From assembly GCF_000234095.1 (NCBI RefSeq), contig NZ_JH376798.1:380521-444520 (forward strand): a stretch of 64,000 nucleotides of DNA, written 5' to 3'. The stretch comes from Centipeda infelix ATCC 43532. GTDB taxonomy: Bacteria; Bacillota; Negativicutes; Selenomonadales; Selenomonadaceae. The notes below the pieces were generated by a model, which saw nothing but the letters and a program-made list of their open reading frames with translations, was not told where the DNA came from and did no database searches. This document shows, in pieces, positions 38,874 to 57,145 of this stretch (positions are counted from its first letter, which is position 1; each line of letters starts with the position of its first letter). Position numbers and translations under genes: made by a program.

Positions 38874-39989
38874 TTATCCGTGCAGGGTGCGCATCAATGC
38901 CTCTTTATTCTCAAGCGGCGTGGTGGTCGGCCGCCCAAGATCCGCACGTGAGCCGATGGCGGTGCGTACCTCAAGGAAGGTAAGTGTATCGGTATCGTGC
39001 AGATGTGCGAGGGTGCGCGAGAGCTCCTCCGCCGTTTCTGCCGTCGGCAGAACATGGTAGCCGACGTTTGCGGCGACGGCGGGGAGGTTGACGCTGCCCG
39101 CTGCCGTCGGTGCGCCGCCGACGCTCTCATGCGCCTCGTTGTTGAGGAGGATGTGCACGAGGTTCTTTGGGGCGGCTGCACCGATGGTCGTGAGTGCGCC
39201 CATGTGCATGAGTGCCGCACCGTCACCGTCGAGGATCACCACACGCCGCTGCGGGCGGTGGAGGGCGATGCCGAGTGCAAGTGCGGAGGCGTGCCCCATC
39301 GAGCCGACGGTGAGGAAGTCATGTGCGTGATCCTCGCCGCGAGCCTCGCGCAGCTCGAACAGCTCGCGTCCCGTCTTGCCCGTGGTCGCGACGATGACGG
39401 CATCTCCTGCCGCATCGAGAATGTGTGCGATTGCGTCCTCGCGGCGCAGCGCGTAGACGTTCGTATACTTTCGTTTCGGATATGTGAGCGCACCGTCGCG
39501 CACGAGGAGGGCGCACTGTCCACCGCGTTCAAGGTGGGGACGGATTTCTTTCATCCAAGCCGCAGCCTCGATGGGGGTGCTTTCACGCGTCAGCACCATT
39601 GTTTTCACGCCCATTGTTTCAAGGAGAGGGAGTGTGAGCCGTCCCTGTACGAGGTGCTGCGGCTCGTCGTGCAGATCCGGCTCGCCGCGCCAGCCGATGA
39701 CGAAGATACACGGGATGCCGTAGACCTCACTGTGCAGCAGGGAGAGCAGCGGGTTGACGATGTTGCCGAGCCCGCTGTTCTGGAGGTATACGAGCGGCGT
39801 CTTACCCGTCGCGAGGTGATAACCCGCCGCGAGTGCCGCCGCGCTGCCCTCGTTCACTGCAATGACGTGTGTGGCACTGTGCGCGCCGTACGTATCCATG
39901 AGATAGTCGACGAGCGGGCGCAGCTTCGAGTCGGGGACGCCCGTGAAGAACTCTGTGCCGAGGGCTGAAATTAGTTCATTTACGTTCAT
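38874..39989 (-). CDS. aepY: Phosphonopyruvate decarboxylase
   Basis: The 371-aa ThDP enzyme has an N-terminal pyrimidine-binding domain with the catalytic Glu region (VIAVNEGSAAALAAGY) and a C-terminal diphosphate domain with the GDGAALMHMGAL motif followed by Asn in LLNNEAHES. It converts phosphonopyruvate to phosphonoacetaldehyde, the irreversible step that pulls PEP mutase forward. It is the last gene of the leftward cluster, separated from the sixth paralogue by a B repeat. Confidence 0.92.
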   Translation of the reverse strand: MNVNELISALGTEFFTGVPDSKLRPLVDYLMDTYGAHSATHVIAVNEGSAAALAAGYHLATGKTPLVYLQNSGLGNIVNPLLSLLHSEVYGIPCIFVIGWRGEPDLHDEPQHLVQGRLTLPLLETMGVKTMVLTRESTPIEAAAWMKEIRPHLERGGQCALLVRDGALTYPKRKYTNVYALRREDAIAHILDAAGDAVIVATTGKTGRELFELREARGEDHAHDFLTVGSMGHASALALGIALHRPQRRVVILDGDGAALMHMGALTTIGAAAPKNLVHILLNNEAHESVGGAPTAAGSVNLPAVAANVGYHVLPTAETAEELSRTLAHLHDTDTLTFLEVRTAIGSRADLGRPTTTPLENKEALMRTLHG

Positions 39990-40026
39990 AGAAGCTCCTT
40001 GCTCTTATCCATTATATGTGCCCATA

Positions 40027-40083
40027 CGTCCAAAGCGCCCCCACCGTCGCCACCTCCCCGCTGCGGCAGGGGAGGCTTTGGGA
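40027..40083. repeat. Family B repeat, copy B8
   Basis: CAAAGCGCCCCCACCGTCGC through GCAGGGGAGGCTTTGG, between aepY and the neighbouring paralogue. Confidence 0.6.
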
Positions 40084-40093
40084 GCCTTGCATC

Positions 40094-42247
40094 CTACTCC
40101 TTCCCAAACCACTGCGGACGCGCCGCGCGCATCGCGGGCCAGAACTCGCCGTTGTTTGCAATCGTACGTACGATTTCGCGTGCACGCGGGTAGAAGAACG
40201 CACGCAGTTCGGGGCTGTCCAGTTCATAGCCCTCCTCGAGCTCGTGGGCGCGGGGATAGATCGCGGCCGCTGCTCCCGCGAAGTCGACCGTTCCATCCTC
40301 GTCGACAACCTCCCGCGTCTCAACGCGCAGGGTGTAGTCATGCGTACGCAGGGCGAGCTTGCACGTTTGTCCCGGATAGATGGATATGCTCGGTACGGCG
40401 TCGCGTGCAGTGCCGCCAAAGACAGCGGGGAGATTGCCGTCAATATCAGCGGCGACAGGGAAGCCCGTGAGCGCACCGAGGGTCGCATAGATATCCGCAA
40501 TGCTTGTCAGCTCGTCCGCAGTCACTCCCTGCGGGATGCCCGCGCCGCGCATCATCCAGGCGGTACGCGCCGAGTCCTCGCCGATGACATCGATCACACC
40601 GCCCTTCGGCGCGGAGAACACCGAGTTCCCATGGTCGGAGTAGAGGCTTACAATGTATTCGTCTGCGGTGAAATGCTCCTCGATATAGGAGAGGAGATAT
40701 CCGATGTTGCGGTCGACGTGGCGCAGGCTCTGCCAGAACTGCTCCTGATAGATTGTGAGACGCGGCAGACGGACGCTCGCGATGCGCTCGTCCAGTTCGA
40801 AGAGGCGGTCGGAGAGCGGCAGATGCGTCTCCACGCGCGGCAGAAATTTGAGCCCCTTTGCATTCCACGGGTGTACATCGGAGATGTGCAGAAAGAGAAA
40901 CTGATCCGCCTCATCGAGTGCCTCGATCTGCATGATCGCACGGTCAACCGCCTCTGCCGAAGGCTGCTTCCACGAGGTCACATTCAGCATATCATAGCCG
41001 CGCATCGCCCCACAGTAGACACTGTCGCTCGTCGCCATCGGCGCGGCGGCGTAGTAGCCGAGATCCAACATACACTCCGAGAGTGTTCGGATCGCAGGGG
41101 ACATCCCATGGCTGTTGCGCTCGTTAAAGACCTGCGTGTGATGGGGCCAGCGGCCCGTCTCGATGACGGGCAGGGCGGGAAAGGTGCACTCCGAGGTGGA
41201 GAAATGTTGATCGAAGATCGTCCCGCGTGCGAAGAAGCGTGCGATGTTCGGCATACATTCCGGGAAGCGCGTGCGTGCCACATTCCACGACAGCCCGTCC
41301 ACGAGGATGTTCAGTACGAGCTTGCGCCGCAGAGGGCTGTGGCCGAGACGAATTGGTGTGCCGACCGCATAGGGGGCGTCGCTCGTCGGTGTGAGTGTGG
41401 TTGTTTCCGCAAGGCGGAAATGGCTGAACGCCCATTTGCCAAGGTATGCGGCGGCGGGTGCCGTATACTCGCTTGTAAAGCGCAGCTCCTGCAGGTGCTC
41501 CGTCCCCGCAACGGGGAGGACGACCTCCGCGCCTGCGGGCACGTCAATGCGTACCGCGCCGCGCACCTCCTGTGCGCGTTGGAGTTGGAACGGGAAATCG
41601 CGCTGCATTCGGTCCACGAACATCTCTGTATGCCGTACCTGCTCAATGAGTGCACTCTTGTCCGAGAGAAAACCGCCCTCGACATAGGCACCGACCCAGT
41701 GTCGTGCACGGCCTTCGGGCGGGGGCAGCGGGAGGTACTCGCCGACAAAGGCATCGGGGATGAATTGGAGGTCATTTCCCGCCGTGAGGATCGCCCGTGT
41801 CTGGACCATCGGTGCACCCATGCCAAGCCCCACTGCGGCAGAGAGACGGCTGAGCCCCTCCGTGCCGCCGCGCTGCAGGAGGTCTGTGGGAATCTCGGGA
41901 GCGAGGTACAGCCCGTAGGCGTAGCCATGCATTGCGAGGGCATCGACGGGGCGATCCAGTTGTGCATAGATCGCTGCGAGGAGTTTCCAGATCTCGTAGT
42001 TCACGGGACGGCGGGCATAGGCACGTTCCGCGCATACGCACGCCGCCTCTGTCTCTGCGTGATGCAGGAGATAGTACGCCGCGAAGATATCCGCACGCTC
42101 GCTCTCGGGCGCAGCCGCCCGATAGGCGGCAAGTACGGCGAGGAAGTCGTCGTCAAACGCACGTCGCTCCGCACGCGCCAAGAGATCGTAAAAGAGTGCG
42201 GAGGAATGCGTGTCATTGCACCAGAATACCGCGAAATCGTCCTGCAT
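40094..42247 (-). CDS. Alkaline-phosphatase-superfamily hydrolase/transferase with TPR-like N-terminus, paralogue 1
   Basis: The start at 42247 (MQDDFAVFW) aligns with the other five paralogues; an upstream ATG at 42280 with a GGGGGTGA ribosome site is a real alternative. The 717-aa protein has a helical TPR-like region (about residues 45-120), a beta-rich middle (about 190-310) and an alkaline-phosphatase/sulfatase-type core. The core shows metal Asp317 in LVDGLSW, candidate nucleophile Thr355 in TFPALPVIETG, HISDVHPW and YSDHG. There is no signal peptide or membrane helix, so it is probably cytoplasmic. Substrate unknown; context suggests phosphonate-containing molecules. Confidence 0.8.
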   Translation of the reverse strand: MQDDFAVFWCNDTHSSALFYDLLARAERRAFDDDFLAVLAAYRAAAPESERADIFAAYYLLHHAETEAACVCAERAYARRPVNYEIWKLLAAIYAQLDRPVDALAMHGYAYGLYLAPEIPTDLLQRGGTEGLSRLSAAVGLGMGAPMVQTRAILTAGNDLQFIPDAFVGEYLPLPPPEGRARHWVGAYVEGGFLSDKSALIEQVRHTEMFVDRMQRDFPFQLQRAQEVRGAVRIDVPAGAEVVLPVAGTEHLQELRFTSEYTAPAAAYLGKWAFSHFRLAETTTLTPTSDAPYAVGTPIRLGHSPLRRKLVLNILVDGLSWNVARTRFPECMPNIARFFARGTIFDQHFSTSECTFPALPVIETGRWPHHTQVFNERNSHGMSPAIRTLSECMLDLGYYAAAPMATSDSVYCGAMRGYDMLNVTSWKQPSAEAVDRAIMQIEALDEADQFLFLHISDVHPWNAKGLKFLPRVETHLPLSDRLFELDERIASVRLPRLTIYQEQFWQSLRHVDRNIGYLLSYIEEHFTADEYIVSLYSDHGNSVFSAPKGGVIDVIGEDSARTAWMMRGAGIPQGVTADELTSIADIYATLGALTGFPVAADIDGNLPAVFGGTARDAVPSISIYPGQTCKLALRTHDYTLRVETREVVDEDGTVDFAGAAAAIYPRAHELEEGYELDSPELRAFFYPRAREIVRTIANNGEFWPAMRAARPQWFGKE

Positions 42248-42317
42248 TGTGAGATTCACTCCCTCGTTTCGGTGTTCCATCAGCGTTTCACCCCCTCCGC
42301 ATCGACATAACGGGACG

Positions 42318-44447
42318 TTATGCTTTCACGCTCGGCTCGGGGAAGACCTCGCCATTGCTTGCAATTCGCTGCAAGAATTCGCGTACGCGCGGGTAGAAGA
42401 ACGCGCGGAGCTCAGGGCTGTCCACTTCATAGCCCGCTTCATGCTCATGTTCACGCGGATAGATCGCGACCTTTGCCTTTGCGATATCCACGGTGCCGTC
42501 CATCGCCACAGGCTCCTCCGTCTCAAGACAGAGCACGTGCGCGGCGGAGCGTGCCGCGAGGAAGTAAGGCTTCGTCGGGAAATGCGAGTTGCTGAACGTG
42601 ATGTCACGACCCTGCCCGCCGAACGCACGCGGAAGTACGCCGTCGATGTAGCTGTCGACGGAGAAGCCAAGCAGATGCCCGAGCGTACTGTAGATATCCA
42701 CGGGGCTGGTCAGCTCGTTCGTATATACCCCGCGTGGGATGCCCGCTCCGCGCATCATCCATGATGCACCTGTGAGGTATGGGTCGACAATGTAGGGATG
42801 TGGGCTGAAGATGGAGACCCCGTGGTCGGAGTAGAGATTCACAATGTACTCATCGGGGGCATAGTGCTCCTCAATATAGTCGAAGAGCACCCCGAGCGAT
42901 CGATCGAGATCGCGCATACCGAGGCGGTATGCCTCCTGATTCAGCGGGCTGGGCAGCAGATAGGGGCTCGGAACAGGACCTGTCGGCTCCGTCATGCGCG
43001 CAGCGAGTGGGAGACGTGCCTGCGCCGCCGTCGGGTATTGGAAGCTCGGTGAGGGCCATGGGTGCACATCGGAGGAGTGGATGAGGATGAAATTCTGTGC
43101 ATCACCCATCCCGTCGAGATGGCGGATGACGCGCTCGACCCCCTCGTAGTTTGCCTGACGGTACGGGGATGTGATGCAGCGGTCATAGCCGCGCGCAGCT
43201 CCTGTATAGATACCCTCACCGACATCCATCAGATTCGAGGTCAGATAGCCTGCATCGCGCATGCGCTCCGAGAGCGTTACATACTCCTCGCGTAGGGGAA
43301 TGGCGATCTTGTTGTTAAAGAGTTGACTGCGGTGGGGATACATTCCCGTCTCGATGGAGGCAAAGGAGGGCGTTGTGTACTCTGCAACCGAGAAATGCTG
43401 ATCGAAGATCAGACCCTCCGCAAAAAAGCGTGCCGTACGCGGCATCTCCTCGGCAAAGTGTGTGCGCAGTACCTGCCATGGAAGGGCATCGGCGAGGATA
43501 TTCAGCACGAGACGGGGCCGTTCGGACTTGCGCCCCACGGGGATCGGCTGCCCCACGAGGAAGTTTTGCTCTGAGGAGAGCTCCGTTTCCTCATTCAGGC
43601 GAAAGAAGTTCGGTGTCGCCACGTTCAGCCAGCCTGATGTGTTGACTGCAGATGTGCGTACGTGCAGCCGCTGCGGCGGACGTATGCCGAGTGCGGGCAG
43701 CACTGTGCCGATCACGGGGAGTACTGCCTCCTCATTTGGTGGGATTGTGACGTGTGCCGCCCCACCCGTGCGCTGACAGCGCATGAGGTCAAAGACAAAA
43801 TCTCCCGCGCCAAAGTAGGCGACACCGTATGAACGGCTCAGCACATTCAGCTGCCATGCCTTGTCTCCCTGAAATCCCTTCTCCGCGTGAACCCCCACAT
43901 AAAGCGGCGGCATTATGTGGGGTGCAACGGGGAGAAACTCGCCCGCGAATACGCTGTCCTCCGTCGTGATCCCCTTTTCGGGATCGTAGGAAGCACGGAC
44001 GGCAATCGGGGCGAACGAGGGGCGGGACAGTGCGACCGACAGGCGGTCCAGCACCTCCTCGGTGAACACCTCCGGCGAGTAGTGCGCCACATCGAATGGG
44101 ACCTCATAGAGCTTTGCCGCATAGCCCTGCATGATGAGCGCATCTGCCCAGCGGTCGACCGCCTCATAGGCACGTCTGAGTACGGCCCAGAGAGTCGCCT
44201 GAATCGGGCGCGTGCGGTAGGCGCGTTCTGCACATACAATGGCGGTCTCCGCATCGCCGTGATGGAGGAGATACTGTGCGGCAAAGAGATCCGCGTGTGC
44301 CGTGTCTGTTGTCTCTTCCCTGTATGCCGCAAGCTGCGCCAGGAAGTCGTCGTCAAAGGCACTCTGCTCTGCGCGGTCGAGGAGATCGCGGAACAGTGCA
44401 CAGGAGCGTTCGTTATTGTGCCAGAAAACCGTCAAATCGTTGTTCAT
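42318..44447 (-). CDS. Alkaline-phosphatase-superfamily paralogue 2
   Basis: It starts at ATG 44447 after GAAGGAG, exactly abutting the stop of paralogue 3. The 709-aa protein has the same layout. Active-site motifs are LADALPW, TTPSFASIETG (Thr nucleophile candidate), HSSDVHPW and YSDHG, all intact. LADALPW and the NFFRLNEETE stretch place it with paralogue 3 as a subgroup. The C-terminus ends after FPEPSVKA without the WFG(K/E) tail seen in paralogues 1, 4 and 6. No signal peptide. Confidence 0.8.
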   Translation of the reverse strand: MNNDLTVFWHNNERSCALFRDLLDRAEQSAFDDDFLAQLAAYREETTDTAHADLFAAQYLLHHGDAETAIVCAERAYRTRPIQATLWAVLRRAYEAVDRWADALIMQGYAAKLYEVPFDVAHYSPEVFTEEVLDRLSVALSRPSFAPIAVRASYDPEKGITTEDSVFAGEFLPVAPHIMPPLYVGVHAEKGFQGDKAWQLNVLSRSYGVAYFGAGDFVFDLMRCQRTGGAAHVTIPPNEEAVLPVIGTVLPALGIRPPQRLHVRTSAVNTSGWLNVATPNFFRLNEETELSSEQNFLVGQPIPVGRKSERPRLVLNILADALPWQVLRTHFAEEMPRTARFFAEGLIFDQHFSVAEYTTPSFASIETGMYPHRSQLFNNKIAIPLREEYVTLSERMRDAGYLTSNLMDVGEGIYTGAARGYDRCITSPYRQANYEGVERVIRHLDGMGDAQNFILIHSSDVHPWPSPSFQYPTAAQARLPLAARMTEPTGPVPSPYLLPSPLNQEAYRLGMRDLDRSLGVLFDYIEEHYAPDEYIVNLYSDHGVSIFSPHPYIVDPYLTGASWMMRGAGIPRGVYTNELTSPVDIYSTLGHLLGFSVDSYIDGVLPRAFGGQGRDITFSNSHFPTKPYFLAARSAAHVLCLETEEPVAMDGTVDIAKAKVAIYPREHEHEAGYEVDSPELRAFFYPRVREFLQRIASNGEVFPEPSVKA

Positions 44448-46559
44448 TTATAGCTCCTTCGGTGTGGGGAATGCCTCCCCGTTGTTTCCGATGCCGCGCA
44501 GGAATTCGCGCACGCGCGGGTAGAAGAATGCACGCAGCTCTGCGCTGTCCACCTCATAGCCCGTTTCGCCCTCGTGTTCGCGTGGATAGATGGCGGAAGA
44601 TGCGTGTGCGACATCCACCGTCCCGTTCGGCAGAACTGGGATGCCTGTCTCAAGATGGAATGTGTGCGTTTTTGCGCGTGCGCGCAGACAGTAGCTCTTG
44701 GTCGGATAGAGCGAGTTGCTGAACGCGATCTCGCGTCCCACACCGCCGAAGAGCTGCGGCAGCACGCCGTCCACATCGTCATCCACGGGAAAACCGCAGA
44801 GGGCACCGAGCGTCGGGTAGATATCGACCGCACTCGTCAGCTCATCCGCGACCACGCCCTCGGGGACCCCTGCCCCGCGCATCATCCACGCCGCATGGGT
44901 CAGATCGGGGCTGACAATGTAGTGGTGTTCACTGAAGACGGGAACGCCGTGGTCGGAGTAGATATTCACGAGATACTCCTCAGGGCTGTAGTGCTTCTCC
45001 AGATAGCGGTAGAGTGCACCCAGCGCACGGTCGAGGTCGCGGATGCCCTGACGGCAGACCTCCATGCTCAGATCCGTGCGGCGCAGATAGGGGCTCGGCT
45101 CGCTGCCCGCCGCGCCCGAGAGACGCGCGGCAAGCGGCAGACGCGCCTGTACACTTGATGTGATCTGAAAGAGCGGATACGGCCACGGGTGAATATCCTG
45201 TATGTGCAGAAAGATAAACTGATCCGTGTCGCGCAGTCCTTCGAGATGGCGAATTGTCCGCTCGACGCCCTCATAGGTATGCAGACGGTAGCCTGTGACG
45301 ATGAGCCGATCATAGCCGCGCGTCACCTCGTTGTAGACCCCAATGCCATCGCCCATGAGATTTGACGTCGCATAGCCGAGGGTACGCATACGCTCGGCCA
45401 GCGTGACGAACTCCTGTCGCAGCGGGACGGCAGCGGCGTTATTTGTAACGATCTGACTGTGATGCTGATACATTCCCGTCTCAATGCTTGGAAGCGATGG
45501 ATGGGTGTACTCCGCAACGGAGAAATGCTGATCGAAGACCGTGCCGCGTGCAAAGAAGCGCGCCGTGTTCGGCATCCATTCGGCAAAGTGTTCGCGCACG
45601 ATTGCCCATGGGAGGGCATCGGCGAGGATGTTCAGCACGAGCGGACGGCGTGCGGGACTGTGTCCGACCGTGATCGGTGTACCGACGATGAAGTTGTGAT
45701 CGGATGAGAACTCCGTCGGCTCTGCGAGGCGGAAAAAGTTCGGGGTTGCGATGGTAAGCGGCGTTTCCTTATCGAGACTCTGCGTCTTTACCCGCAGCTG
45801 CTGGAAGTCAATTGTACCGAGCACGGGCAGGACGGCGCTCTGCCCCGGGGCAAGATGAATCTCTGCCTTGCCGGGGGCACGTTCGCCGCGGATGAGGTCG
45901 AACGTGAAGTCTCCGCCGAGATAGTAGGCGAAATCCTTCGCATGGCGGATGTTATAGAGCAGCCATGCCTTATTCCCCTGCTGCTCCTGCTCCGTGTAGA
46001 CACCGACATAGTACGGCGGGAGATCCGAGGTGCTTTGCGGGAGAAACTCGCCCATGAACGATGTGCTCTCAGCCGTCAGCCCTTGCTCCGCGCTGTAGGA
46101 CATACGGGATACGGCGATCGGGGCAAAGCCCGCCTTGCCCATCGCGACGGAGAGACGGTCAAGGAGCTCGTCGGTGAATACCTCCGGAGGAATGCCCTCG
46201 GCTGTGAGCGGGCGTTCGAGCAGCTTTGCCATGTACGCCTGCATGATGAGCGCGTCCGCATAGCGCCCCTGTGCCATATAGGCACGCGCGAGCACCTGCC
46301 ATGCGGCGTACTCGATGGGGCGGGTGCGGAAGGCACGTTCGCCGCAGAGGGCAGCCGCCTCCGCATCGCCGTTTGCGAGGAGATAGTGTGCTGCAAAGAC
46401 ATCGGCGTGCACCGCATCACCGCCCGCCTCCCGATAGGCGGCGAGGAGGGCGAGATATTCCTCGTCATAGGCATCGCGTTCCATGCGTATCAAAAGCTCT
46501 TGAAAGAGCGTATAGGCGCGGCCGTTGTTTTGCCAAAATGTACGGCAATCGTCTGTCAT
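44448..46559 (-). CDS. Alkaline-phosphatase-superfamily paralogue 3
   Basis: The start is ATG 46559 (MTDDCRTFW) after GAGGGAAGGG; the longer ORF into the neighbour is not supported. The 703-aa protein has active-site motifs LADALPW, THPSLPSIETG, HIQDIHPW and YSDHG. HIQDIHPW differs from the HxSDVHP of the others, a possible specificity change. It is closest to paralogue 2. Zero-base spacing to paralogue 2 suggests coupled translation. Confidence 0.8.
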   Translation of the reverse strand: MTDDCRTFWQNNGRAYTLFQELLIRMERDAYDEEYLALLAAYREAGGDAVHADVFAAHYLLANGDAEAAALCGERAFRTRPIEYAAWQVLARAYMAQGRYADALIMQAYMAKLLERPLTAEGIPPEVFTDELLDRLSVAMGKAGFAPIAVSRMSYSAEQGLTAESTSFMGEFLPQSTSDLPPYYVGVYTEQEQQGNKAWLLYNIRHAKDFAYYLGGDFTFDLIRGERAPGKAEIHLAPGQSAVLPVLGTIDFQQLRVKTQSLDKETPLTIATPNFFRLAEPTEFSSDHNFIVGTPITVGHSPARRPLVLNILADALPWAIVREHFAEWMPNTARFFARGTVFDQHFSVAEYTHPSLPSIETGMYQHHSQIVTNNAAAVPLRQEFVTLAERMRTLGYATSNLMGDGIGVYNEVTRGYDRLIVTGYRLHTYEGVERTIRHLEGLRDTDQFIFLHIQDIHPWPYPLFQITSSVQARLPLAARLSGAAGSEPSPYLRRTDLSMEVCRQGIRDLDRALGALYRYLEKHYSPEEYLVNIYSDHGVPVFSEHHYIVSPDLTHAAWMMRGAGVPEGVVADELTSAVDIYPTLGALCGFPVDDDVDGVLPQLFGGVGREIAFSNSLYPTKSYCLRARAKTHTFHLETGIPVLPNGTVDVAHASSAIYPREHEGETGYEVDSAELRAFFYPRVREFLRGIGNNGEAFPTPKEL

Positions 46560-46578
46560 GATGTCCCTTCCCTCGCAC

Positions 46579-48741
46579 TCATTGTCCGTATTTCTCTCCA
46601 AACCAGTCTTTTCGTGCGGCACGCATCGACGGCCAGAATTCGCCGTTGTTTGCAATGTTCGCGAGGAATGCCCGTGCACGCGGATAGAAGAACGCGCGCA
46701 GTTCGGGGCTGTCTACGATGTATGCGGTATAGAGCTCATGTCCGCGCACAAAGATGTTCGGTTCGCATCCCGCAAAGTTAACCGTTCCGTCCTCGTCGAC
46801 ATACTCGTTGGTCTCCAGACGCAGGACGTGCTCATGTGTACGCATGGCAAGTTTGAACGTCTGACCGCGGAACATGGAGGTCGTGTAGACCACATCGCGT
46901 GCCGTACCGCCGAACGCGGCGGGCAGATTCCCGTCGATGTCGGGGCTGACGGGGAAGCCGACGAGATGTCCAAGCGTGGGGTAGAGGTCGAGCGAGCTCG
47001 TGAGTTCGCTTGCGACCACGCCCTGCGGAACACCTGCTCCGCGCATCATCCACGTTGCACCGGTCGACTGTTCTCCGGTGACGTCGACCACCCACGTCTC
47101 AGGGTTTACGCTGAAGACGGGAACGCCGTGATCGGAGTAGAGGTTCACGATATACTCATCCGCGGCGAAGTTCTCCTCGATGTAGGAGAGGAGCTGACCA
47201 ATCGCGCGGTCAACATTGCGCGCACCGTCCAGAAACTGCTGTTGATAGATCTCCGCGTTCGGCAGACGAACGCTGGCGACCCCGTCCTGTACTTCATAGA
47301 GGCGGTCGGAGAGCGGCAGGGATGTCTCCACCGGCAGATTGAACTTATAAGCCTTTGCATCGTAGGGGTGCACATCGGAGACATGGAGGAAGAGAAAGAG
47401 ATCTGCCTCTTTGAATGCCTTGATGTAGCGGAGCGTGCGATCCGCTCCGATAAAAGCGTGTGTATTCCACGAGCAGGGGTTGATCTGATCGTAGCCGCGG
47501 AAAATATTGCTGTAGATGCAGTCCGACATGAGCATGGGCGAGGCGCAGTGATAGCCAAGATCCTTCATGCGTTCCGCGAGCGTGATGAAGTTTGGCGCGA
47601 GCCTGTGATAGTGCGTTCCGTTGAAGATCTGTGTGTGGTGCGGGTAGCAGCCCGTCTCGATTCCGGGGAGTGCGGGGTAGGTGTACTCCGAGGTGGAGAA
47701 ATGCTGATCGAAGATGATGCCCTGCTTGAAAAACGCGGCGATGTTGGGCATATCCTGTGCGAAACGGGATCGCATGACCGGCCATGAGAGCGCGTCGACG
47801 AGAATGTTCAGCACGAGCCTCTTGCGCTGCGGGCTGTGTCCGAGACGGATGGGCGTACCGACGGCGATGGGAGCGTTGTCCGTCGTACGCAGTGTGGTGT
47901 CCTCGTTTAGGCGGTAGTAGCTGAATGCCCATCTGCCAAGATATGTGGTGCGCTCCCCCATCGACGGGGTCTCTACCGAGATGGGCTGTTCGTCTGCCGT
48001 CCCCGCAAGCGGCAGTATGATCTCCTGTCCCTCCGCAATGTCGATGTTCATCGTGCCGCAGATCTCGCGTGCCTTCTGCATCTGGAAGGTGAAGTCGCGA
48101 TGCCCGCAGACGGAGAACCACAGGCTGTTGCGTACATCGTCGATCAGGTAGCTCTTCTCCGAGAGGAAGCCGTAGTCTGCATAGCAGCCGACCCAGAATG
48201 GATCACTGCCCGCAGGGACGGGCAGCGGTATCGTCTCGCCGATAAAGACATCGCGGTGGAAGTGCACCGCATCATCCTTCAGATAGGCGCGGTAGGTTGC
48301 CATCGGCGCGTATGTCGTATCCTCAAGGGCTGCGGACAGGTAGGCGAGCGCCTCGGCTGTCGGCGTGTGTGTGAGCCGCAGCGGGGGCAGGGGATCCCCG
48401 TAGACATTGTGGCAGTAGGCTCGTATGATGAGTGCGTCGAGCTCGCGTCCCGTCTGCTCGTATGCGGGGGCGAGCACCTTCCATACCTCGTAGTTCACGG
48501 GGCGGCGGGCAAAGGCACGCTCTGCGCAGACACATGCTCCCTCCGCATCGCCGTGTGCGAGGAGGTACTGCGCGGCGAAGATGTCCGCATGCTCACTTGC
48601 AGGGGCTTCCTCCCGATAGGCGGCAAGTACGGCGAGAAAGTCGTCGTCGAAGGCGTTCCGCTCCGCACGCGTCAGCAGATCGCAGAAGAGTTCGCGGGCG
48701 CGTGCGTTGTTTTGCCAGAATACATTGAGCTCGTCCGTCAT
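46579..48741 (-). CDS. Alkaline-phosphatase-superfamily paralogue 4
   Basis: It starts at ATG 48741 after AAGGAAAGGAC. The 720-aa protein has motifs LVDALSW, TYPALPGIETGCY, HVSDVHPYD and YSDHG, and ends KDWFGEKYGQ. It has the same TPR-like N-terminus (ADIFAAQYLLAHGDAEGA) and no signal peptide. Its stop lies 19 nt before paralogue 3. Confidence 0.8.
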   Translation of the reverse strand: MTDELNVFWQNNARARELFCDLLTRAERNAFDDDFLAVLAAYREEAPASEHADIFAAQYLLAHGDAEGACVCAERAFARRPVNYEVWKVLAPAYEQTGRELDALIIRAYCHNVYGDPLPPLRLTHTPTAEALAYLSAALEDTTYAPMATYRAYLKDDAVHFHRDVFIGETIPLPVPAGSDPFWVGCYADYGFLSEKSYLIDDVRNSLWFSVCGHRDFTFQMQKAREICGTMNIDIAEGQEIILPLAGTADEQPISVETPSMGERTTYLGRWAFSYYRLNEDTTLRTTDNAPIAVGTPIRLGHSPQRKRLVLNILVDALSWPVMRSRFAQDMPNIAAFFKQGIIFDQHFSTSEYTYPALPGIETGCYPHHTQIFNGTHYHRLAPNFITLAERMKDLGYHCASPMLMSDCIYSNIFRGYDQINPCSWNTHAFIGADRTLRYIKAFKEADLFLFLHVSDVHPYDAKAYKFNLPVETSLPLSDRLYEVQDGVASVRLPNAEIYQQQFLDGARNVDRAIGQLLSYIEENFAADEYIVNLYSDHGVPVFSVNPETWVVDVTGEQSTGATWMMRGAGVPQGVVASELTSSLDLYPTLGHLVGFPVSPDIDGNLPAAFGGTARDVVYTTSMFRGQTFKLAMRTHEHVLRLETNEYVDEDGTVNFAGCEPNIFVRGHELYTAYIVDSPELRAFFYPRARAFLANIANNGEFWPSMRAARKDWFGEKYGQ

Positions 48742-48777
48742 ACTGTGTCCTTTCCTTGTACCGCCATAGCGTTATCT

Positions 48778-50892
48778 TTAGCGCACAAACAGTTCCCCGT
48801 TGTTTGAAATCTCCCGCACGAAGTCACGCGCACGTGGGTAGAAGAACGTACGCAGCTCCGCACTGTCCACAATGTGTGCGGGATTGAGTTCGTGGCCGCG
48901 CAGGTAGATCTGTGCCTCTGCGTCCGCGAAGTCCGCCGTTCCATCCTGTGCGGTGCAGCCGCGCGTCTCCACGCGCAGCACATGATCGCGCGTGCGTACG
49001 GCGAGCTTGAACGTCTGTCCCGGGAACTGGGAGACGGAGTAGGCCGCGTCGCGCTCCCTGCCGCCGAATACGGCGGGCAGATTGCCGTCGAGACCATCGG
49101 CGACGGGAAAGCCGCAGAGCTTTCCGAGCGTTGGGTAGATATCGACCGAGCTGGTGAGCTCGTCGGTGATGATGCCCTCGGGCACGCCCGCGCCGCGGAT
49201 CATCCACGTTGCGCCGGTCGCATATTCTCCGATGAGGTCGGTTTCCGCTCCCGCAGGATCGGGGTCGAAGAGGGCGCAGCCATGATCGGAGTAAAGATTT
49301 ACAATGTATTCATTCTCGTCATAGTGCTCCTCGATATAGGAGAGGAGTGCTCCCACGCTGCGATCAATGTGGCGGAGGCTCACGCGCAGCTGCTCCAGAT
49401 AGATGGGCAGACGAGGTGTCCGAACACTGGGCAGGGTTGGGTCAAGCGGGACAAAGCGATCGGCAAGGGGGATGTGTGCCTCCACCTCCGTGGAGAATTT
49501 GGGCGGCATCTGTACGTTGAGCGGATGCACGTCACTTGTATGGTAGAGCATGAAATGATCCACCTCGGGCAGCGCCTCCAATGTACGCAGAACGCGCTCT
49601 GCCCCCTCGTATGTGGGCTGAAAGGCATGTGTGGAGATGAGACGTTGATAGCCGCGGTACACTCCGGTATAGCATAATTGCCCTGTCGCGAGCGGCGCAG
49701 AGCAGTAGTAGCCGAGTGCCTGCATCTCCTCGGAGAGCGTGCGTACCGCAAGCGGCAGTTCGTGCGAGTCACACTCGTGAAAGATCTGCGTGTGGTGCGA
49801 GTAGAGCCCTGTCTCAATGGTCGGAAGGGCGGACAGGGTATGCTCGGCGGCTGAGAAATGCTGGTCGAAGATGACCCCGCGGGCAAAGAATTTTGCAATG
49901 TGCGGCATGTACTCCGCAAATAGAGGACGTACCGCCGGCCAGCACAGCCCGTCGATGAGCAGATTCAGCACGAGTTTTTTGCGATGCGGACTGTGCCCAA
50001 GGCGGATTGGTGTACCAACGGCAAAGGGAGCATCGTCCGAGCGCAGTGTTGCCGTCTCCGTGAGACGGAAATAGCTGAATGCCCATTTGCCGAGGTAGCC
50101 GGGATACTCGTTTGCAGCAGTTTGGATGGAAAATCTCTGGTCGACCTTTGTCCCCGCCACCGGTACGACAAAAGCTTCGCCCGCCGGCACATCGATGCGG
50201 ATGTGGTCGCTGATTTCCCGTGCCTTTTGGATGTCAAAGGTCGCATCTCGATTGCAGACGAAGAAGTTGAGCTCATGCCGTCTGGGCTCATGGACATACG
50301 ACATCATGGAGAGAAAGCCTTCGTCGACGAAGATGCCGACCCAGAAACGGTCGCTGCTGCTTGGCATCGTGGTGGGAATCTCCTCGCCGATGTAAATATC
50401 GTTGACGAGCTGCACGGCACCGTTTTCAAGAACCGCACGGCCGATGATCAGCGGCGCGTAGCTCGACATATTCGTCGCCATGGTGAGGCGGCTGAGCGCC
50501 TCATCACGCGGACAATCCCTCGGAAGGGTGGGGCAGAACGTATCCTGCGGGGCTCTCCGCTGGATATATCCCCGGATTGTGAGCGCATCGCGTTCGCGTC
50601 CGAGCGCACTGTATGCAGTGGAGAGAACGTGCCACACGGCGAAATTCAACGGGCGTTTTTGAAAGGCACGCTCCCCGCAGAGTGCGGCGTTCTCCGCATC
50701 GCCGCACGCGAGGAGGTAGAGTGCGGCAAAGATATCCGCACGCTCACTCTCGGGGGCAGCCTCCCGATAGGCGGCAAGTACGGCGAGAAAGTCGTCGTCG
50801 AAGGTGTTCCGTTCCGCACGCGCCAGCAGATCGCGGAAAAGTTCGTAAGCACGTACGTTGTTGCGCCAGAATACGCTGAGATCGTTCGTCAC
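48778..50892 (-). CDS. Alkaline-phosphatase-superfamily paralogue 5
   Basis: A GTG start at 50892 (MTNDLSVFW) follows AAGGAAAGGAC and aligns with the others; the longer ORF would overlap paralogue 6. The 704-aa protein has motifs LIDGLCW, TLSALPTIETG, HTSDVHPLN and YSDHG. The Cys in LIDGLCW is unique in the set. The C-terminus stops early after NNGELFVR, without the WFG tail. Confidence 0.78.
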   Translation of the reverse strand: MTNDLSVFWRNNVRAYELFRDLLARAERNTFDDDFLAVLAAYREAAPESERADIFAALYLLACGDAENAALCGERAFQKRPLNFAVWHVLSTAYSALGRERDALTIRGYIQRRAPQDTFCPTLPRDCPRDEALSRLTMATNMSSYAPLIIGRAVLENGAVQLVNDIYIGEEIPTTMPSSSDRFWVGIFVDEGFLSMMSYVHEPRRHELNFFVCNRDATFDIQKAREISDHIRIDVPAGEAFVVPVAGTKVDQRFSIQTAANEYPGYLGKWAFSYFRLTETATLRSDDAPFAVGTPIRLGHSPHRKKLVLNLLIDGLCWPAVRPLFAEYMPHIAKFFARGVIFDQHFSAAEHTLSALPTIETGLYSHHTQIFHECDSHELPLAVRTLSEEMQALGYYCSAPLATGQLCYTGVYRGYQRLISTHAFQPTYEGAERVLRTLEALPEVDHFMLYHTSDVHPLNVQMPPKFSTEVEAHIPLADRFVPLDPTLPSVRTPRLPIYLEQLRVSLRHIDRSVGALLSYIEEHYDENEYIVNLYSDHGCALFDPDPAGAETDLIGEYATGATWMIRGAGVPEGIITDELTSSVDIYPTLGKLCGFPVADGLDGNLPAVFGGRERDAAYSVSQFPGQTFKLAVRTRDHVLRVETRGCTAQDGTADFADAEAQIYLRGHELNPAHIVDSAELRTFFYPRARDFVREISNNGELFVR

Positions 50893-50939
50893 GTTATTGT
50901 CCTTTCCTTCGCTCAAAGCGTTCCCTCCCTCGTGCACCG

Positions 50940-53108
50940 TTACGATTCTTCCCCAAACCACTGCGGACGCGCTGCACGCATCGCAGGCCAGTGTTCGCCG
51001 TTGCTTGCGATCGCGCGCACGAAGTCACGTGCGCGCGGGTAGAAGAACGCACGCAGCTCCTCGGAGTCGAGCCGATAGCCTTCCTCAAGTTCGTGTTCAC
51101 GCGGATAGATGCCGACTATTGCTCCTGCAAGGTCCACACGCCCGTCCTCGTCGACGAACTCCCGCGTCTCAAGGCGCAGCGCATGATCGCGCGTGCGGAC
51201 AGCAAGCTTGAATGTCTGCCCCGGGTACTGGGACATGGAGTAGACCACATCGCGCTCCCTGCCGCTGAATACGGCGGGGAGATTGCCGTCACTGCACGCG
51301 GCGACGGAGAAGCCGCACAGATGGGCGAGCGTCCGCTGGATATCGACAATGCTCGTCAGCTCATTTGCACGCACACCCACGGGCACGCCCGCGCCGCGCA
51401 TCATCCATGTCGCGTTTGAGACGTATGTGCTGATAATATCCAGCTTGTCCGAGGTTTCCTTGTTGAATATGGGAACACCGTGATCCGAGTAGAGGCTGAC
51501 AATGTACTCGTCGTCGGCAAAGTTCTCCTCCAGGTAGGTGAGGAGGATACCGATGTTGTGATCCACCTGACGCACACGCTCCAGATACTGCTCCTGATAG
51601 ATGCGCATATTGGTCAAAAAGACGCTTGCCGTGCGCTCTGTGTGGTCAAAGAAGCGGTCGGCGAGCGGGAGGTGGGTCTCAACGTTGGTGTCGAATTTAT
51701 AGCCGAGACCGTCGTACGGATGTACGTCATTGACCGCAAGGAAGAGGAACTGATCGACCTCGTCGAAGGCTTTGAGCTGGCGCAGGACGCGATCCACGCC
51801 ATCGACCGAATTCTGAATCCATGTGGAGAGCACCGCACGGTCATAGCCGCGCATGACGCCTTGAGAGAGCCCCTGATCGGCCCCCATCGGGATGGCACAG
51901 TAGTAGCCGAGTGCCTTCATGTGCTCGGCTGTGGTGGTCATCTCTGCGGGCAGCTCGCGTCCGGCATTTACGTTGAAGATATGTGTATGATGGGGATAGC
52001 AGCCGGTCTCAATGGCGGGGAATGCCGAGAGGGTATGCTCCGAGGTCGAGAAATGCTGATCGAAGATTGTGCCACGTGCGAAGAATTTGGAGATGTTTGG
52101 CAGATGGGTCGCGGCGTAGGGACGAACGACCGCCCAGGATAGGGCATCGACGAAAATATTCAGGACGAGCTTGCGCCGCGCAGGACTGTGTCCGAGCAGG
52201 ATCGGCGTGCCGATGGCATAGGCATCCTGTGCATCGGCATACAGCTGTGTGGTCTCGTTCAGACGAAAGAAGCTGAACGCCCACTTGCCGAGATAGATAT
52301 CCCGTGTCCCCATGGAGGGCGTTGTGACAGAGATTCGTTGGTCGGGGACCGTGCCCGCCAAGGGGACAATCGCCTCCCGTCCGGCGGGAAGGGCGATCTC
52401 GGTTGTGCCGCGCACCTCGCTTGCCTTTTGCAGGTCAAAGAAGAAGTCGCGGTGTCCGTAGCGTGTGAACCACGCGGTATGCCGTGCCTCAGTGAGCATA
52501 TAGCTGTGATCGGACAGCCCCGTGTTCTCTGCATAGGCGGCACTCCAAAAGCGTGCGCTGCCCTGTGGCATCGTTATGGGAATCTCCTCACCGATGAATA
52601 TGTCAAAGCGGAACCCGAGCCCCGGGTTCATCAGATAGGCGCGGCTGGTTGAGGTCGGGGCGTTCAGGCTCTTTCCCGTAGCGAGCGTCAGTCGGCCCAG
52701 GGCTTCGTTTTGAATTTCCTCACTCAGACTGAGATCGAGGTCAATTCCCCCCGTGTCCGCGCCCCGATAGAGCCCGTAGGCGTAGCCCTGCATCGTGACG
52801 GCATCGAGCTCCCGCCCGAGCTGCTTGTAGGCGGCGGCGAGCACGCGCCACACCTCGAGATTCAGGGGCCGCTTTTGAAAGGCGCGTTCCCCGCAAAGCG
52901 CGGCGCTTTCCGCGTCGCCGTGATGGAGAAGGTACTGTGCTGCGAAGATGTCCGCACGCTCACTCTCGGGGGCTGCCATACGATAGGCGGCAAGTACGGC
53001 GAGAAAGTCATCGTCGTATGCCGCACGTTCGGAGCGTGCCAAGAGATCGTAAAAGAGTTCTGAGGCACGCTTGTCATTGCGCCAAAATACGGTGAAGTCG
53101 TCCTGCAT
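50940..53108 (-). CDS. Alkaline-phosphatase-superfamily paralogue 6
   Basis: The start is ATG 53108 (MQDDFTVFW) after AGAGGAC. The 722-aa protein has motifs FVDALSW (Asp321), TLSAFPAIETG (Thr359), VNDVHPYD and YSDHG (Asp542-His543). The N-terminus and the C-terminal PQWFGEES are closest to paralogue 1, at the other end of the array. It starts 24 nt after aepZ, firmly inside the same operon. Confidence 0.8.
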   Translation of the reverse strand: MQDDFTVFWRNDKRASELFYDLLARSERAAYDDDFLAVLAAYRMAAPESERADIFAAQYLLHHGDAESAALCGERAFQKRPLNLEVWRVLAAAYKQLGRELDAVTMQGYAYGLYRGADTGGIDLDLSLSEEIQNEALGRLTLATGKSLNAPTSTSRAYLMNPGLGFRFDIFIGEEIPITMPQGSARFWSAAYAENTGLSDHSYMLTEARHTAWFTRYGHRDFFFDLQKASEVRGTTEIALPAGREAIVPLAGTVPDQRISVTTPSMGTRDIYLGKWAFSFFRLNETTQLYADAQDAYAIGTPILLGHSPARRKLVLNIFVDALSWAVVRPYAATHLPNISKFFARGTIFDQHFSTSEHTLSAFPAIETGCYPHHTHIFNVNAGRELPAEMTTTAEHMKALGYYCAIPMGADQGLSQGVMRGYDRAVLSTWIQNSVDGVDRVLRQLKAFDEVDQFLFLAVNDVHPYDGLGYKFDTNVETHLPLADRFFDHTERTASVFLTNMRIYQEQYLERVRQVDHNIGILLTYLEENFADDEYIVSLYSDHGVPIFNKETSDKLDIISTYVSNATWMMRGAGVPVGVRANELTSIVDIQRTLAHLCGFSVAACSDGNLPAVFSGRERDVVYSMSQYPGQTFKLAVRTRDHALRLETREFVDEDGRVDLAGAIVGIYPREHELEEGYRLDSEELRAFFYPRARDFVRAIASNGEHWPAMRAARPQWFGEES

Positions 53109-53132
53109 GCTTCTATGTCCTCTCCCCAACGA

Positions 53133-54227: not shown

Positions 54228-54935
54228 TCACTTCCGATACATAAAGCAGGTGAAGATAAACGGCGCATTCCAGTAATCCGCCATCTGGAGGGCGGGGAAG
54301 ACGATCCGCAGATCGTGTTCCTGTGCAAAGTCCTCGAAGAACTCTCTGCGGAAGAAGAGGCGGCCGAGCCCCTCGTAGCGTTCATCGTAGTTCGGGATGT
54401 TCGCGCGGCGGAACGTGAGATAGTCCTGCCGCTTCGCACGGTCGTGCAGCTCCGTGATGCCGATGGCGTACCGCGACTTTTCGAGCATACGCTCGAGCAC
54501 ACGGGTCGCGTAGGCGTGATCGGGGAAATAGGAGAAGACGCCGCAGGAATAGACGGCATCGTACTTCTCCTCCGTCGGGATATCTGCCGCCTCCATCGCT
54601 CCCATCTCGCGTGCGTTGGGAACGACCGCACGTGCTGTTTCGATCAGCCCCTCGGCGTAGTCCGAGCCGCCGACGATCATTCCCTCACGCTGCATGAGGT
54701 ACATATTCGCGCCCGCGCCGCAGCCGACCTCATAGACGGACTTGCCGGGCGTGAGGTCAAGCAGCTCCACGAGCCCCGAGTGAAAGTTCAGCAATGCCTC
54801 AAGCGGGACACCGCCCTCCATGACATCGTAGCCGTTGAGCCGCTTCAGTTCGAGATAAACGTGCTCCCAGTCCCCCGTCAGCCCTCCTGTGACGGGCCTC
54901 CTGCGATTCCAGATCTCTTTCCATTTGTTTCCCAT
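54228..54935 (-). CDS. SAM-dependent class I methyltransferase
   Basis: The 235-aa protein has SAM motif I YEVGCGAGAN near residue 67 and the acidic loop GSDYAEG. It sits between PEP mutase (1-nt TAATG overlap) and aepZ. No signal peptide. By position it could N-methylate aminoethylphosphonate or modify its acceptor, but the sequence does not identify a substrate. Confidence 0.8.
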   Translation of the reverse strand: MGNKWKEIWNRRRPVTGGLTGDWEHVYLELKRLNGYDVMEGGVPLEALLNFHSGLVELLDLTPGKSVYEVGCGAGANMYLMQREGMIVGGSDYAEGLIETARAVVPNAREMGAMEAADIPTEEKYDAVYSCGVFSYFPDHAYATRVLERMLEKSRYAIGITELHDRAKRQDYLTFRRANIPNYDERYEGLGRLFFRREFFEDFAQEHDLRIVFPALQMADYWNAPFIFTCFMYRK

Positions 54936-56230: not shown

Positions 56231-56265
56231 GTGGTAGTTCTCCCTCTATCCCTATTTATCGTATT

Positions 56266-56325
56266 TATGCCTCCCCCGCCGCGGCAGGGGAGGGGGACCA
56301 TGCGAAGCATGGTGGAAGGGCGCTT
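56266..56325. repeat. Family B repeat, copy B9
   Basis: GCCTCCCCCGCCGCGGCAGG through CATGGTGGAAGGGCGC, in the aepX-cytidylyltransferase gap. The gap 56231-56377 has nothing else. Confidence 0.65.
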
Positions 56326-56365
56326 TGAGCGAATGGGGCACTCTCACGTAAGAGAGTCTCGTTTC

Positions 56366-56432
56366 CCACCGGCGCCCCTATCGGCTCACTGCATTCGCCA
56401 CTTCCCCCGCCGCGACGGGGGAAGCTGAATTT
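56366..56432. repeat. Family B repeat, copy B10, partly coding
   Basis: GGCGCCCCTATCGGCTCACT then ACTTCCCCCGCCGCGACGGG. It provides the stop and the last roughly 18 codons of the neighbouring cytidylyltransferase gene. Confidence 0.65.
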
Positions 56433-57145
56433 CCGCGCATCCTTTCCTCCAGCTCCCGCAGCTCCTCCACCGTATCGATCTCCCACACGTCCGCGCGCGT
56501 GCATTCCCTGATATACACGTCGCATTCGTGCAGATGATATTTCAGCATGATCTCGTCCCAGTAGAGCTGACGATACTGCTTCTCGGCGTAGAGCGCATTC
56601 GCACACGCGGCGAGCCGTGCCCCGTCCGCTGCCGTCCAGTAGGACAGCCCGAGCATCTGATGACAGGGGTGATCGCTCGCCGTGTCAATGTGCGTGATCT
56701 TCCCGTCCGCGTCCGTGTCAAAGCACCAATCATCCGTCGCCTGCACGGGGAACGCGATGTAGTTCGTGCGCGTCTGTGTGGGTGTGATGACAGCGGGATT
56801 TGCGAGGTAGAGATCGCCCTCGATAACGTAGCTGTCCGCGAGCAGCCCCGCACGCCCCGCGAGGGCGATGGACGAGATGTTGTTTGCGGTTTCCCAGTCG
56901 GGATTGTCGATGAATGCGAGATGCGGGTACGTTTTGCGGAGTGCGTCAAATGCCTCTCCGCAATACCCCCGTACAATAGTAATCGACGAAATCCCCGCTG
57001 CGTTAAGCGCATCGAGAATTGTCGCAATGATTGGCGTGCCGTTCACGGGGACGAGCGGTTTCGGCACGCGATCCGTCAGCGGTGCGAGCCGCGAGCCGCG
57101 CCCTGCCGCGAGAATGACGGCGCGGGTTACGCGATGTGCATCCAT
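56378..57145 (-). CDS. LicC/PntC-type nucleotidyltransferase (probable CTP:2-aminoethylphosphonate cytidylyltransferase)
   Basis: The ATG at 57145 overlaps the trpS stop (TGATG). The 255-aa protein has the nucleotidyltransferase signature LAAGRGSRLAPLTDRVPKPL and the LicC-like NNISSIALAGRA and EGDLYLANP motifs. In the phosphonate setting it most likely makes CMP-2-aminoethylphosphonate (PntC activity). The last roughly 18 residues (after EERMRGN) come from a family B repeat and are probably not conserved. Confidence 0.8.
   Translation of the reverse strand: MDAHRVTRAVILAAGRGSRLAPLTDRVPKPLVPVNGTPIIATILDALNAAGISSITIVRGYCGEAFDALRKTYPHLAFIDNPDWETANNISSIALAGRAGLLADSYVIEGDLYLANPAVITPTQTRTNYIAFPVQATDDWCFDTDADGKITHIDTASDHPCHQMLGLSYWTAADGARLAACANALYAEKQYRQLYWDEIMLKYHLHECDVYIRECTRADVWEIDTVEELRELEERMRGNSASPVAAGEVANAVSR

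What the first reader, a model, noticed from the sequence alone, without database searches (positions are those of the whole stretch)
38874..57145. Phosphonate cluster with six tandem TPR plus alkaline-phosphatase-superfamily paralogues
Seen: six consecutive same-strand genes (703-722 aa) share a TPR-like N-terminus, beta-rich middle and an alkaline-phosphatase-superfamily core with all metal-site and Thr motifs kept in all six. They are enclosed by PEP mutase, phosphonopyruvate decarboxylase, 2-aminoethylphosphonate transaminase, a LicC/PntC-type nucleotidyltransferase and a methyltransferase, with gaps of 0-105 nt. Known: these phosphonate enzymes together make aminoethylphosphonate and its CMP-activated form. 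Inferred: the six paralogues, lacking signal peptides, are cytoplasmic phosphonotransferases or phosphodiesterases acting on CMP-aminoethylphosphonate or on acceptors recognised by the TPR part. I know of no described system with this arrangement.
Basis: partly seen in the sequence, partly recalled or inferred. Interest (0 to 1): 0.93.

Follow-up and report, generated by a model that had tools for sequence, protein, structure and literature searches.

The report
Sixfold array of phosphonate-attaching enzymes
A Selenomonas bacterium carries genes predicted to make and activate the carbon-phosphorus compound aminoethylphosphonate and, among them, six related genes whose enzymes likely attach such groups to sugars on cell-surface proteins, possibly the flagellum; the known kind of attaching enzyme (LicD) was not found in this genome.

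Summary
Six same-strand paralogues (T1-T6, window 40094-53129) sit between phosphonopyruvate decarboxylase and AEP transaminase in a Selenomonas. Each has a TPR N-terminus, a beta-rich middle and an alkaline-phosphatase-superfamily core. In 91 of 91 aligned relatives the nucleophile position is Thr and the formylglycine Arg is missing, so these are not sulfatases.
In 101 Selenomonadaceae genomes, 26 of 29 with PepM have this family. It lies within 3 kb of pepM in 22; in the other 4 the two are on different contigs.
The family is not tied to phosphonates. Without pepM it often sits beside choline kinase + LicC, or beside genes resembling the C. difficile type A flagellin set. Its commonest partner is a LicC-type nucleotidyltransferase (25 of 29 loci; one fusion). 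Others are GT41 glycosyltransferases (12 of 29; one fusion) and, in other genera, flagellin.
LicD, the known family for this step, is absent from all 9 genomes of the host's genus searched. Each of 29 PepM genomes has LicD, this family, or both.
Best reading: soluble transferases that move CMP-activated head groups onto O-glycans of flagellin or similar glycoproteins. No activity or product was tested; in the host's genus the flagellin link is only by analogy.

The parts
38874..39989 (-). phosphonopyruvate decarboxylase (ppd), last gene of the run
   Evidence: TIGR03297 440 bits, cut-off 312.5
40094..42280 (-). T1, TPR-ALP paralogue (start by alignment 42247)
   Evidence: Sulfatase PF00884 58 bits; alignment
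42318..44447 (-). T2, TPR-ALP paralogue
   Evidence: PF00884 69 bits
44448..46559 (-). T3, TPR-ALP paralogue (ORF open to 46679; start by alignment)
   Evidence: PF00884 75 bits, TPR_19 below its cut-off
46579..48741 (-). T4, TPR-ALP paralogue; folded here
   Evidence: PF00884 72 bits; AF2 pLDDT 92.9, pTM 0.94
48778..50892 (-). T5, TPR-ALP paralogue (GTG start by alignment; ORF open to 50961)
   Evidence: PF00884 56 bits
50940..53108 (-). T6, TPR-ALP paralogue (ORF open to 53129; start by alignment)
   Evidence: PF00884 52 bits
53133..54224 (-). 2-aminoethylphosphonate transaminase
   Evidence: TIGR03301 427 bits, cut-off 360.8
54228..54935 (-). SAM-dependent methyltransferase, predicted to N-methylate the head group
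   Evidence: Methyltransf_11; homologue beside the family in pepM-less L052 and L057
54935..56230 (-). cytidylyltransferase-like domain fused to PEP mutase (pepM); motif EDKxxxxxNS present
   Evidence: PF01467 and PF13714; TIGR02320 389 bits, cut-off 319.6; sequence
56378..57151 (-). LicC/PntC-like nucleotidyltransferase, predicted AEP cytidylyltransferase (ATG option 57145)
   Evidence: NTP_transf_3 48.5 bits
57145..58242 (-). tRNA synthetase class Ic (Trp/Tyr type), next gene upstream; frequent neighbour in the genus, probably not part of the pathway
   Evidence: PF00579 250 bits

Best explanation
The six paralogues are predicted to be soluble head-group transferases: each would take CMP-activated aminoethylphosphonate (likely N-methylated) made by the flanking genes, hold the phosphonate on its invariant threonine, and pass it to an O-glycan of a glycoprotein, most likely flagellin, while that protein is still in the cytoplasm. 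Shown: the gene run, the equivalog-level AEP enzymes, the conserved Thr and metal-site residues, the lack of a formylglycine motif and of any hydrophobic signal or anchor, the high-confidence predicted fold, and the linkage counts across genomes. Inferred from family membership: PEP to phosphonopyruvate (PepM), decarboxylation (Ppd), transamination to AEP, CTP activation by the LicC/PntC-like enzyme. Inferred from genome context only: that CMP-AEP is the donor, that a covalent Thr intermediate forms with CMP leaving, that the acceptor is a GT41-type glycan, that the TPR part docks the acceptor protein, and that the six copies differ in acceptor or site (their beta middle is the most divergent part, 37% mean identity against 58% for the TPR part and 51% for the core).
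For: Phosphonate link: 26 of 29 PepM genomes (over cut-off) among 101 have the family, against 9 of 72 others (p 2e-13; 1.8e-9 without the host's genus); in 22 of the 26 the nearest copy is within 3 kb of pepM, in the other 4 on a different contig. Activation link: LicC-type gene within 10 kb in 25 of 29 loci; in 17 genomes that I picked, 16 against 0.5 expected; one LicC-TPR-ALP fusion, P0187, 919 aa. Head groups swap while the family stays: AEP transaminase, Fe-ADH, choline kinase, or LicC-aminotransferase, and the types interleave on the tree (FastTree). LicD: of 29 PepM genomes 15 have the family and no LicD match, 11 have both, 3 LicD only, 0 neither. Acceptor: GT41 within 10 kb in 12 of 29 loci; GT41-TPR-ALP fusion of 1205 aa; flagellin within 25 kb in at least 11 of 26 genomes outside the host genus (listing cut), about 2.3 expected for one random locus each, and in 3 of 3 single-contig ones; G072 has one same-strand run from flagellin through GT41 genes, the family and pepM to ppd. 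A distant relative in another family (G318) sits by choline kinase, LicC, BCCT and nonulosonate genes. Precedents (passages): AEP on C. difficile flagellin (PMC8861647); FlmG's TPR part binds flagellins (PMC7591256).
Against: No activity, donor, acceptor or product was tested. In the host's genus no pepM-linked array has flagellin within 25 kb: in 4 of 9 genomes they are over 200 kb apart and in 5 on different contigs, so the acceptor there rests on other genera. The own flagellin locus has GT41s but none of this family. The LicD contrast is weak as statistics (3 of 3 against 11 of 26, p 0.10), 9 of the 15 LicD-less genomes are one genus, one (G050) is 88% complete, and 11 PepM genomes have LicD that could do the transfer. 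Other transferase families were not searched. Four of 29 loci lack a LicC neighbour, as do 6 of 6 distant paralogue loci tallied apart (one of them, L063, has a PF00483 gene beside it). Centipeda periodontii (L016) has LicC and one copy but no phosphonate gene in 22 kb. The nearest solved folds are hydrolases. TPR and middle profiles match no neighbouring GT41 protein.
Confidence: 0.55

Rival explanations
1. Same transferase chemistry, but the main acceptor in this genus is not flagellin: an autotransporter adhesin, another outer-membrane protein or a surface glycan precursor takes the AEP.
For: In the host's genus no pepM-linked array has flagellin within 25 kb (0 of 9). A GT41 gene lies near an autotransporter gene 27-31 kb before the window start (L105). 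TibC-type glycosyltransferases sit near the family in 5 of 29 loci.
Against: Flagellin is the recurring neighbour in other genera (at least 11 of 26) and one own GT41 array adjoins flagellin.
Confidence: 0.22
2. The paralogues are hydrolases (phosphodiesterases or phosphonate-ester hydrolases) that trim AEP or recycle CMP-AEP; LicD-type or other enzymes do the transfer.
Against: No LicD match in any of 9 genus genomes (other transferase families not searched). Natural fusions to LicC and to GT41 join it to synthesis, not breakdown. A six-copy eraser beside the maker is unlikely (judgement).
Confidence: 0.15
3. The paralogues add phosphoglycerol- or phosphoethanolamine-like groups from lipid donors, as LtaS/EptA do (recalled), and the phosphonate neighbourhood is incidental.
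For: Same Thr and metal-site pattern (mapping to LtaS/EptA recalled); LtaS 4uoo is a weak sequence match (E 0.0044).
Against: No membrane segment; linkage to pepM and LicC far above chance.
Confidence: 0.05

Closest known systems
AEP tailoring pathway with PntC/LicC cytidylyltransferase (Rice et al. 2019, PMC6697681; abstract and passages seen)
   Same: PepM fused to a nucleotidyltransferase domain, Ppd, AEP transaminase, a LicC-like enzyme beside them
   Different: The main text has no occurrence of sulfatase, alkaline phosphatase, Selenomonas or flagell- (term finds; supplements not searched) and calls later tailoring steps enigmatic; it does mention LicD-like phosphotransferases nearby. Here a six-copy candidate transferase fills the cluster
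C. difficile type A flagellin modification (PMC4441256 passages; PMC8861647 abstract and passages)
   Same: phosphoserine-phosphatase-like, phosphocholine-cytidylyltransferase-like and methyltransferase genes with a flagellin glycosyltransferase, as in relative L052; AEP reported on the flagellin GlcNAc
   Different: C. difficile was reported negative for pepM; CD0244 was described as matching only hypothetical proteins. No sequence comparison with these proteins was made here
FlmG flagellin glycosyltransferase of Caulobacter (PMC7591256, passages)
   Same: TPR N-terminus joined to a transferase, cytoplasmic modification of several flagellins
   Different: Catalytic part is a glycosyltransferase, not an ALP-superfamily core; the TPR parts were not compared
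ALP-superfamily phosphotransferases LtaS, EptA, EptC, PptA (recalled)
   Same: Thr nucleophile and one-metal-type ligand pattern; EptC and PptA act on proteins
   Different: They are membrane-anchored with lipid donors; the family here is soluble by prediction, TPR-bearing and tied to nucleotide activation
LicD phosphocholine transferases (role recalled)
   Same: Expected to use activated head groups made by LicC; every PepM genome here has LicD or this family
   Different: Different Pfam family; no match in the host genome

Membership tests
S1 sulfatases | formylglycine motif C/S-x-P-x-R at the nucleophile | tested here: not met
   Thr at the nucleophile in 91 of 91, Arg of the motif in 0 of 91; alignment to solved sulfatases puts Thr at that position
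Phosphonate monoester hydrolases (PMH) | formylglycine (Cys) nucleophile (recalled) | tested here: not met
ALP-superfamily Thr phosphotransferases (LtaS/EptA type) | Thr nucleophile with Asp...Asp-His metal ligands | tested here: met
   D316, T354, D537, H538 invariant in 91 of 91; mapping to LtaS is recalled, coordinates were not superposed
ALP-superfamily Thr phosphotransferases (LtaS/EptA type) | N-terminal membrane anchor | tested here: not met
   highest 19-residue hydropathy 0.98-1.41 in T1-T6
ALP-superfamily Thr phosphotransferases (LtaS/EptA type) | lipid-linked donor | not testable with these tools
   needs an enzyme assay
Nucleotide pyrophosphatase/phosphodiesterase (NPP) | second metal site ligands | tested here: inconclusive
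   PF01663 passes its cut-off in all six; of the residues near that site H458 is kept in 91 of 91 and D456 in 83 of 91
LicD | PF04991 domain | tested here: not met
   no LicD match in T1-T6
AEP biosynthesis cluster | PepM with EDKxxxxxNS, Ppd and AEP transaminase at equivalog level | tested here: met
   TIGR02320, TIGR03297, TIGR03301 above cut-off; motif in sequence, motif definition from PMC6697681 passage
FlmG-type TPR-guided flagellin modifiers | TPR part binds flagellin | not testable with these tools
   TPR fold and profile matches present; binding needs two-hybrid or pull-down
FlmG-type TPR-guided flagellin modifiers | C-terminal glycosyltransferase domain | tested here: not met
   core is Sulfatase/ALP superfamily
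C. difficile type A flagellin gene set | homologues of CD0241, CD0242, CD0243 | not tested
   only matched by described function to Pfam hits of L052; sequences not compared

The most novel reading that the evidence does not exclude
A new class of cytoplasmic transferase: a TPR-guided alkaline-phosphatase-superfamily enzyme that uses nucleotide-activated donors (CMP-AEP, CMP-HEP, CDP-choline, CMP-phospho-amino acid) instead of lipids, decorates protein-linked glycans of flagellin and adhesins, stands in for LicD, and is multiplied into arrays in which each copy reads its own acceptor.
Probability: 0.45. Interest if true: 0.9.

Novelty: new variant of a known kind. Interest (0 to 1): 0.82.

Why it matters
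Most bacterial phosphonate capacity is said to go to cell-surface tailoring, while the later tailoring steps are called enigmatic (PMC6697681 abstract and passages). This family is a concrete candidate for the missing transfer step in genomes without LicD. It would also be a candidate for attaching zwitterionic groups to flagellin glycans, where AEP has been seen in C. difficile without a known source (PMC8861647, passages). One purified enzyme, CMP-AEP and a glycosylated flagellin would test it.

Tried and rejected
Rejected: secreted sulfatase (no signal or anchor by hydropathy, no formylglycine motif). Rejected: a phosphonate-only family (choline and aminotransferase loci). Rejected: decayed copies (dN/dS 0.11-0.21). 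Tried without result: a module shared with neighbouring GT41 proteins, no hit at E 0.01. The N-terminal plus middle model gave weak matches to the TPR-plus-oxygenase protein AspH (Foldseek E 2.7e-4, TM to query 0.2-0.3) and, lower, to TPR domains and cupins; the VIA second look at it did not run, so the middle's fold is left open. Viral fold library: best rows are generic sulfatases and other esterases of viruses. PHROGs: one weak family of unknown function. Phylum search with the N-terminal plus middle profile: full-length matches in 3 of 398 genomes, all Selenomonadaceae; 31 others matched short stretches only, mostly TPR, the best being G318, whose protein is a full-length distant relative, so this search misses distant kin. 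Protein search from G318 lists relatives named Lachnospiraceae and Bacteroidales; their loci were not fetched. Flagellin-less genomes: 0 of 6 have the family, p 0.07, too few to count. Literature: no paper with phosphonate, pepM, sulfatase and tetratricopeptide, none with phosphonate biosynthesis, pepM and Selenomonas, none with flagellin, phosphorylcholine and modified flagellin; the library holds open-licence papers only. The Selenomonas sputigena flagellin glycan paper (Rath 2018) is not held; I saw only its citation in PMC13339959 passages.

Rows and limits: 6 family members under 640 aa were dropped before the 91-row alignment, and identical sequences were kept once; some named and unnamed loci are the same genomes. 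G012's sub-cut-off PepM match is counted as no PepM. G029, G041, G044, G075, G082 and the host are not in the 29-locus tally, whose loci are at most 20 kb and labelled by phmmer against hand-picked references. The 17 genomes leave out 3 of the 4 loci known to lack LicC. Flagellin listings are cut; Flagellin_N also matches shorter hook-type frames. The closing counts (38/38/38) are a script error; its per-genome lists were used. Locus L130 (G321) was fetched and not followed.

Full report
WHAT IS THERE. The window lies on contig C2 of a 2.41 Mb genome. Genomes that share its genus have contigs of the same lengths as Selenomonas noxia, S. flueggei, S. artemidis and Selenomonas sp. F0473 records, so the host is a Selenomonas; that these are mouth bacteria is recalled. 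One minus-strand run reads, in order of transcription: LicC-like nucleotidyltransferase, cytidylyltransferase-PEP mutase fusion, methyltransferase, AEP transaminase, T6, T5, T4, T3, T2, T1, phosphonopyruvate decarboxylase. Junctions are 0-104 nt or a 1-nt overlap except PepM-LicC, 147 nt. A search with T4 finds these six copies and no others in the genome. Each copy shows dN/dS 0.11-0.21 against its nearest held relative.

LINKAGE TO PHOSPHONATE. I searched 101 Selenomonadaceae genomes, the host included. 35 have the family and 29 have PepM over cut-off. 26 have both, 9 the family only, 3 PepM only, 63 neither (Fisher p 2e-13; 1.8e-9 without the 9 genomes of the host's genus; relatedness is not otherwise corrected for). 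In 22 of the 26 the nearest copy lies within 3 kb of pepM; the other four have them on different contigs. In the host's genus the array lies between AEP transaminase and Ppd where both are held, with one further copy outside it in G008. Centipeda periodontii (L016) has one copy beside LicC and no phosphonate gene in 22 kb.

NOT PHOSPHONATE ALONE. Where pepM is missing from the locus, the family often still sits beside activation of another head group: choline kinase + LicC with a BCCT transporter (L055), a LicC-choline kinase fusion (L067), or a HAD enzyme + methyltransferase + LicC-aminotransferase fusion (L052). Two family loci with PepM (L075, L077) carry an iron alcohol dehydrogenase and no transaminase, which suggests a hydroxyethylphosphonate variant. 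Over 29 loci, one per genome, LicC-type genes lie within 10 kb in 25, PepM in 18, GT41 in 12, choline kinase in 6. The four without LicC are G017, G061, G064, G074. Six distant paralogue loci tallied apart have no LicC call, though L063 has a PF00483 gene beside it. In 17 genomes that I chose, 16 have the LicC-type gene within 10 kb against 0.5 expected. One protein, P0187, joins LicC, TPR and the ALP core in 919 residues. Head-group types interleave on the family tree (FastTree, some long branches), as if the chemistry had been swapped around a constant transferase.

LICD. LicD is the known family that uses LicC products (recalled). I searched 34 genomes for it, all 29 PepM genomes among them. 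None of the 9 genus genomes has a match. Over the 29, 15 have the TPR-ALP family and no LicD, 11 have both, 3 (G020, G021, G040) have LicD and no TPR-ALP, and none lacks both. This shows that LicD cannot be the general answer in these genomes and leaves TPR-ALP as the candidate. As a contrast it is weak: 3 of 3 against 11 of 26, p 0.10, 9 of the 15 are one genus, and G050 is 88% complete. Other transferase families were not searched.

ACCEPTOR. GT41, TibC-type and TPR-GT2 enzymes, which glycosylate proteins in the cytoplasm (recalled), surround many family loci outside the host's genus. G019 fuses GT41 and TPR-ALP in one 1205-residue frame. Flagellin lies within 25 kb of the family in at least 11 of 26 genomes outside the genus (the listing was cut), against about 2.3 expected for one random locus each, and in 3 of 3 single-contig genomes. 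G047 has a flagellin match 260 bp away. G072 has a same-strand run: flagellin, GT2 enzymes, GT41 genes, TPR protein, TPR-ALP, PepM, three TPR-ALPs, methyltransferase, LicC, GT61, AEP transaminase, Ppd. A distant relative outside the family (G318) stands by choline kinase, LicC, BCCT and nonulosonate genes. Against this, in the host's genus none of 9 pepM-linked arrays has flagellin within 25 kb; 4 are over 200 kb away and 5 on other contigs. A different paralogue in G078 is 18 kb from flagellin. The host has GT41 genes at its flagellin locus and another near an autotransporter 27-31 kb before the window, so either could be the acceptor.

MECHANISM. PEP to phosphonopyruvate, to phosphonoacetaldehyde, to AEP, to CMP-AEP, with a likely N-methylation; then the conserved Thr would displace CMP and the phosphonate would be handed to a sugar hydroxyl on a TPR-docked glycoprotein. 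The first steps follow from equivalog-level family hits; the last two are inference. AEP on the GlcNAc of a flagellin glycan is documented in C. difficile (PMC8861647, abstract and passages), where phosphatase-, cytidylyltransferase- and methyltransferase-like genes act in the type A cluster (PMC4441256, passages). TPR docking of flagellin is documented for FlmG (PMC7591256, passages).

NOVELTY. I found no description of this arrangement (searches; open-licence library only). It works like known head-group transferases but fails a defining test of each hydrolase or transferase family tried: formylglycine, membrane anchor, LicD domain. I file it as a new variant of a known kind, a soluble branch of the Thr phosphotransferases with a nucleotide-activated donor by inference.

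Noticed in passing
L088 9951-11354 (G056): In a relative, part of the array is broken into three short frames matching different copies; described only, nothing mended.
   Followed up: no
L060 7065-14298, L061 8906-11479, L062 9256-11850: A longer paralogue subfamily (about 790-865 aa, one to three copies) lies far from pepM; in L060 it is beside a valyl-tRNA synthetase and near an O-antigen-ligase-like gene. No LicC call.
   Followed up: partly
L054 6966-10962 (G017): A lone family member sits next to motA/motB homologues, a further motility link without head-group genes.
   Followed up: partly
L016 9000-12109 (Centipeda periodontii): One family copy beside LicC with no phosphonate gene in the 22 kb held.
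   Followed up: no
L070 15135-18752 (G019): GT41 and TPR-ALP fused in one 1205-aa frame.
   Followed up: partly
P0187: LicC-type nucleotidyltransferase fused to a TPR-ALP protein (919 aa).
   Followed up: partly
window 35095-38774: DUF5693 gene and a polysaccharide pyruvyl transferase on the other strand, next to the cluster.
   Followed up: no
L105 7770-13170 (own genome, 27-33 kb before the window): GT41 gene near an autotransporter, a possible second glycoprotein system.
   Followed up: partly
window 47857-48303 (T4 residues 147-295): The beta middle gives only weak AspH/cupin-like matches; its fold and role are open.
   Followed up: partly
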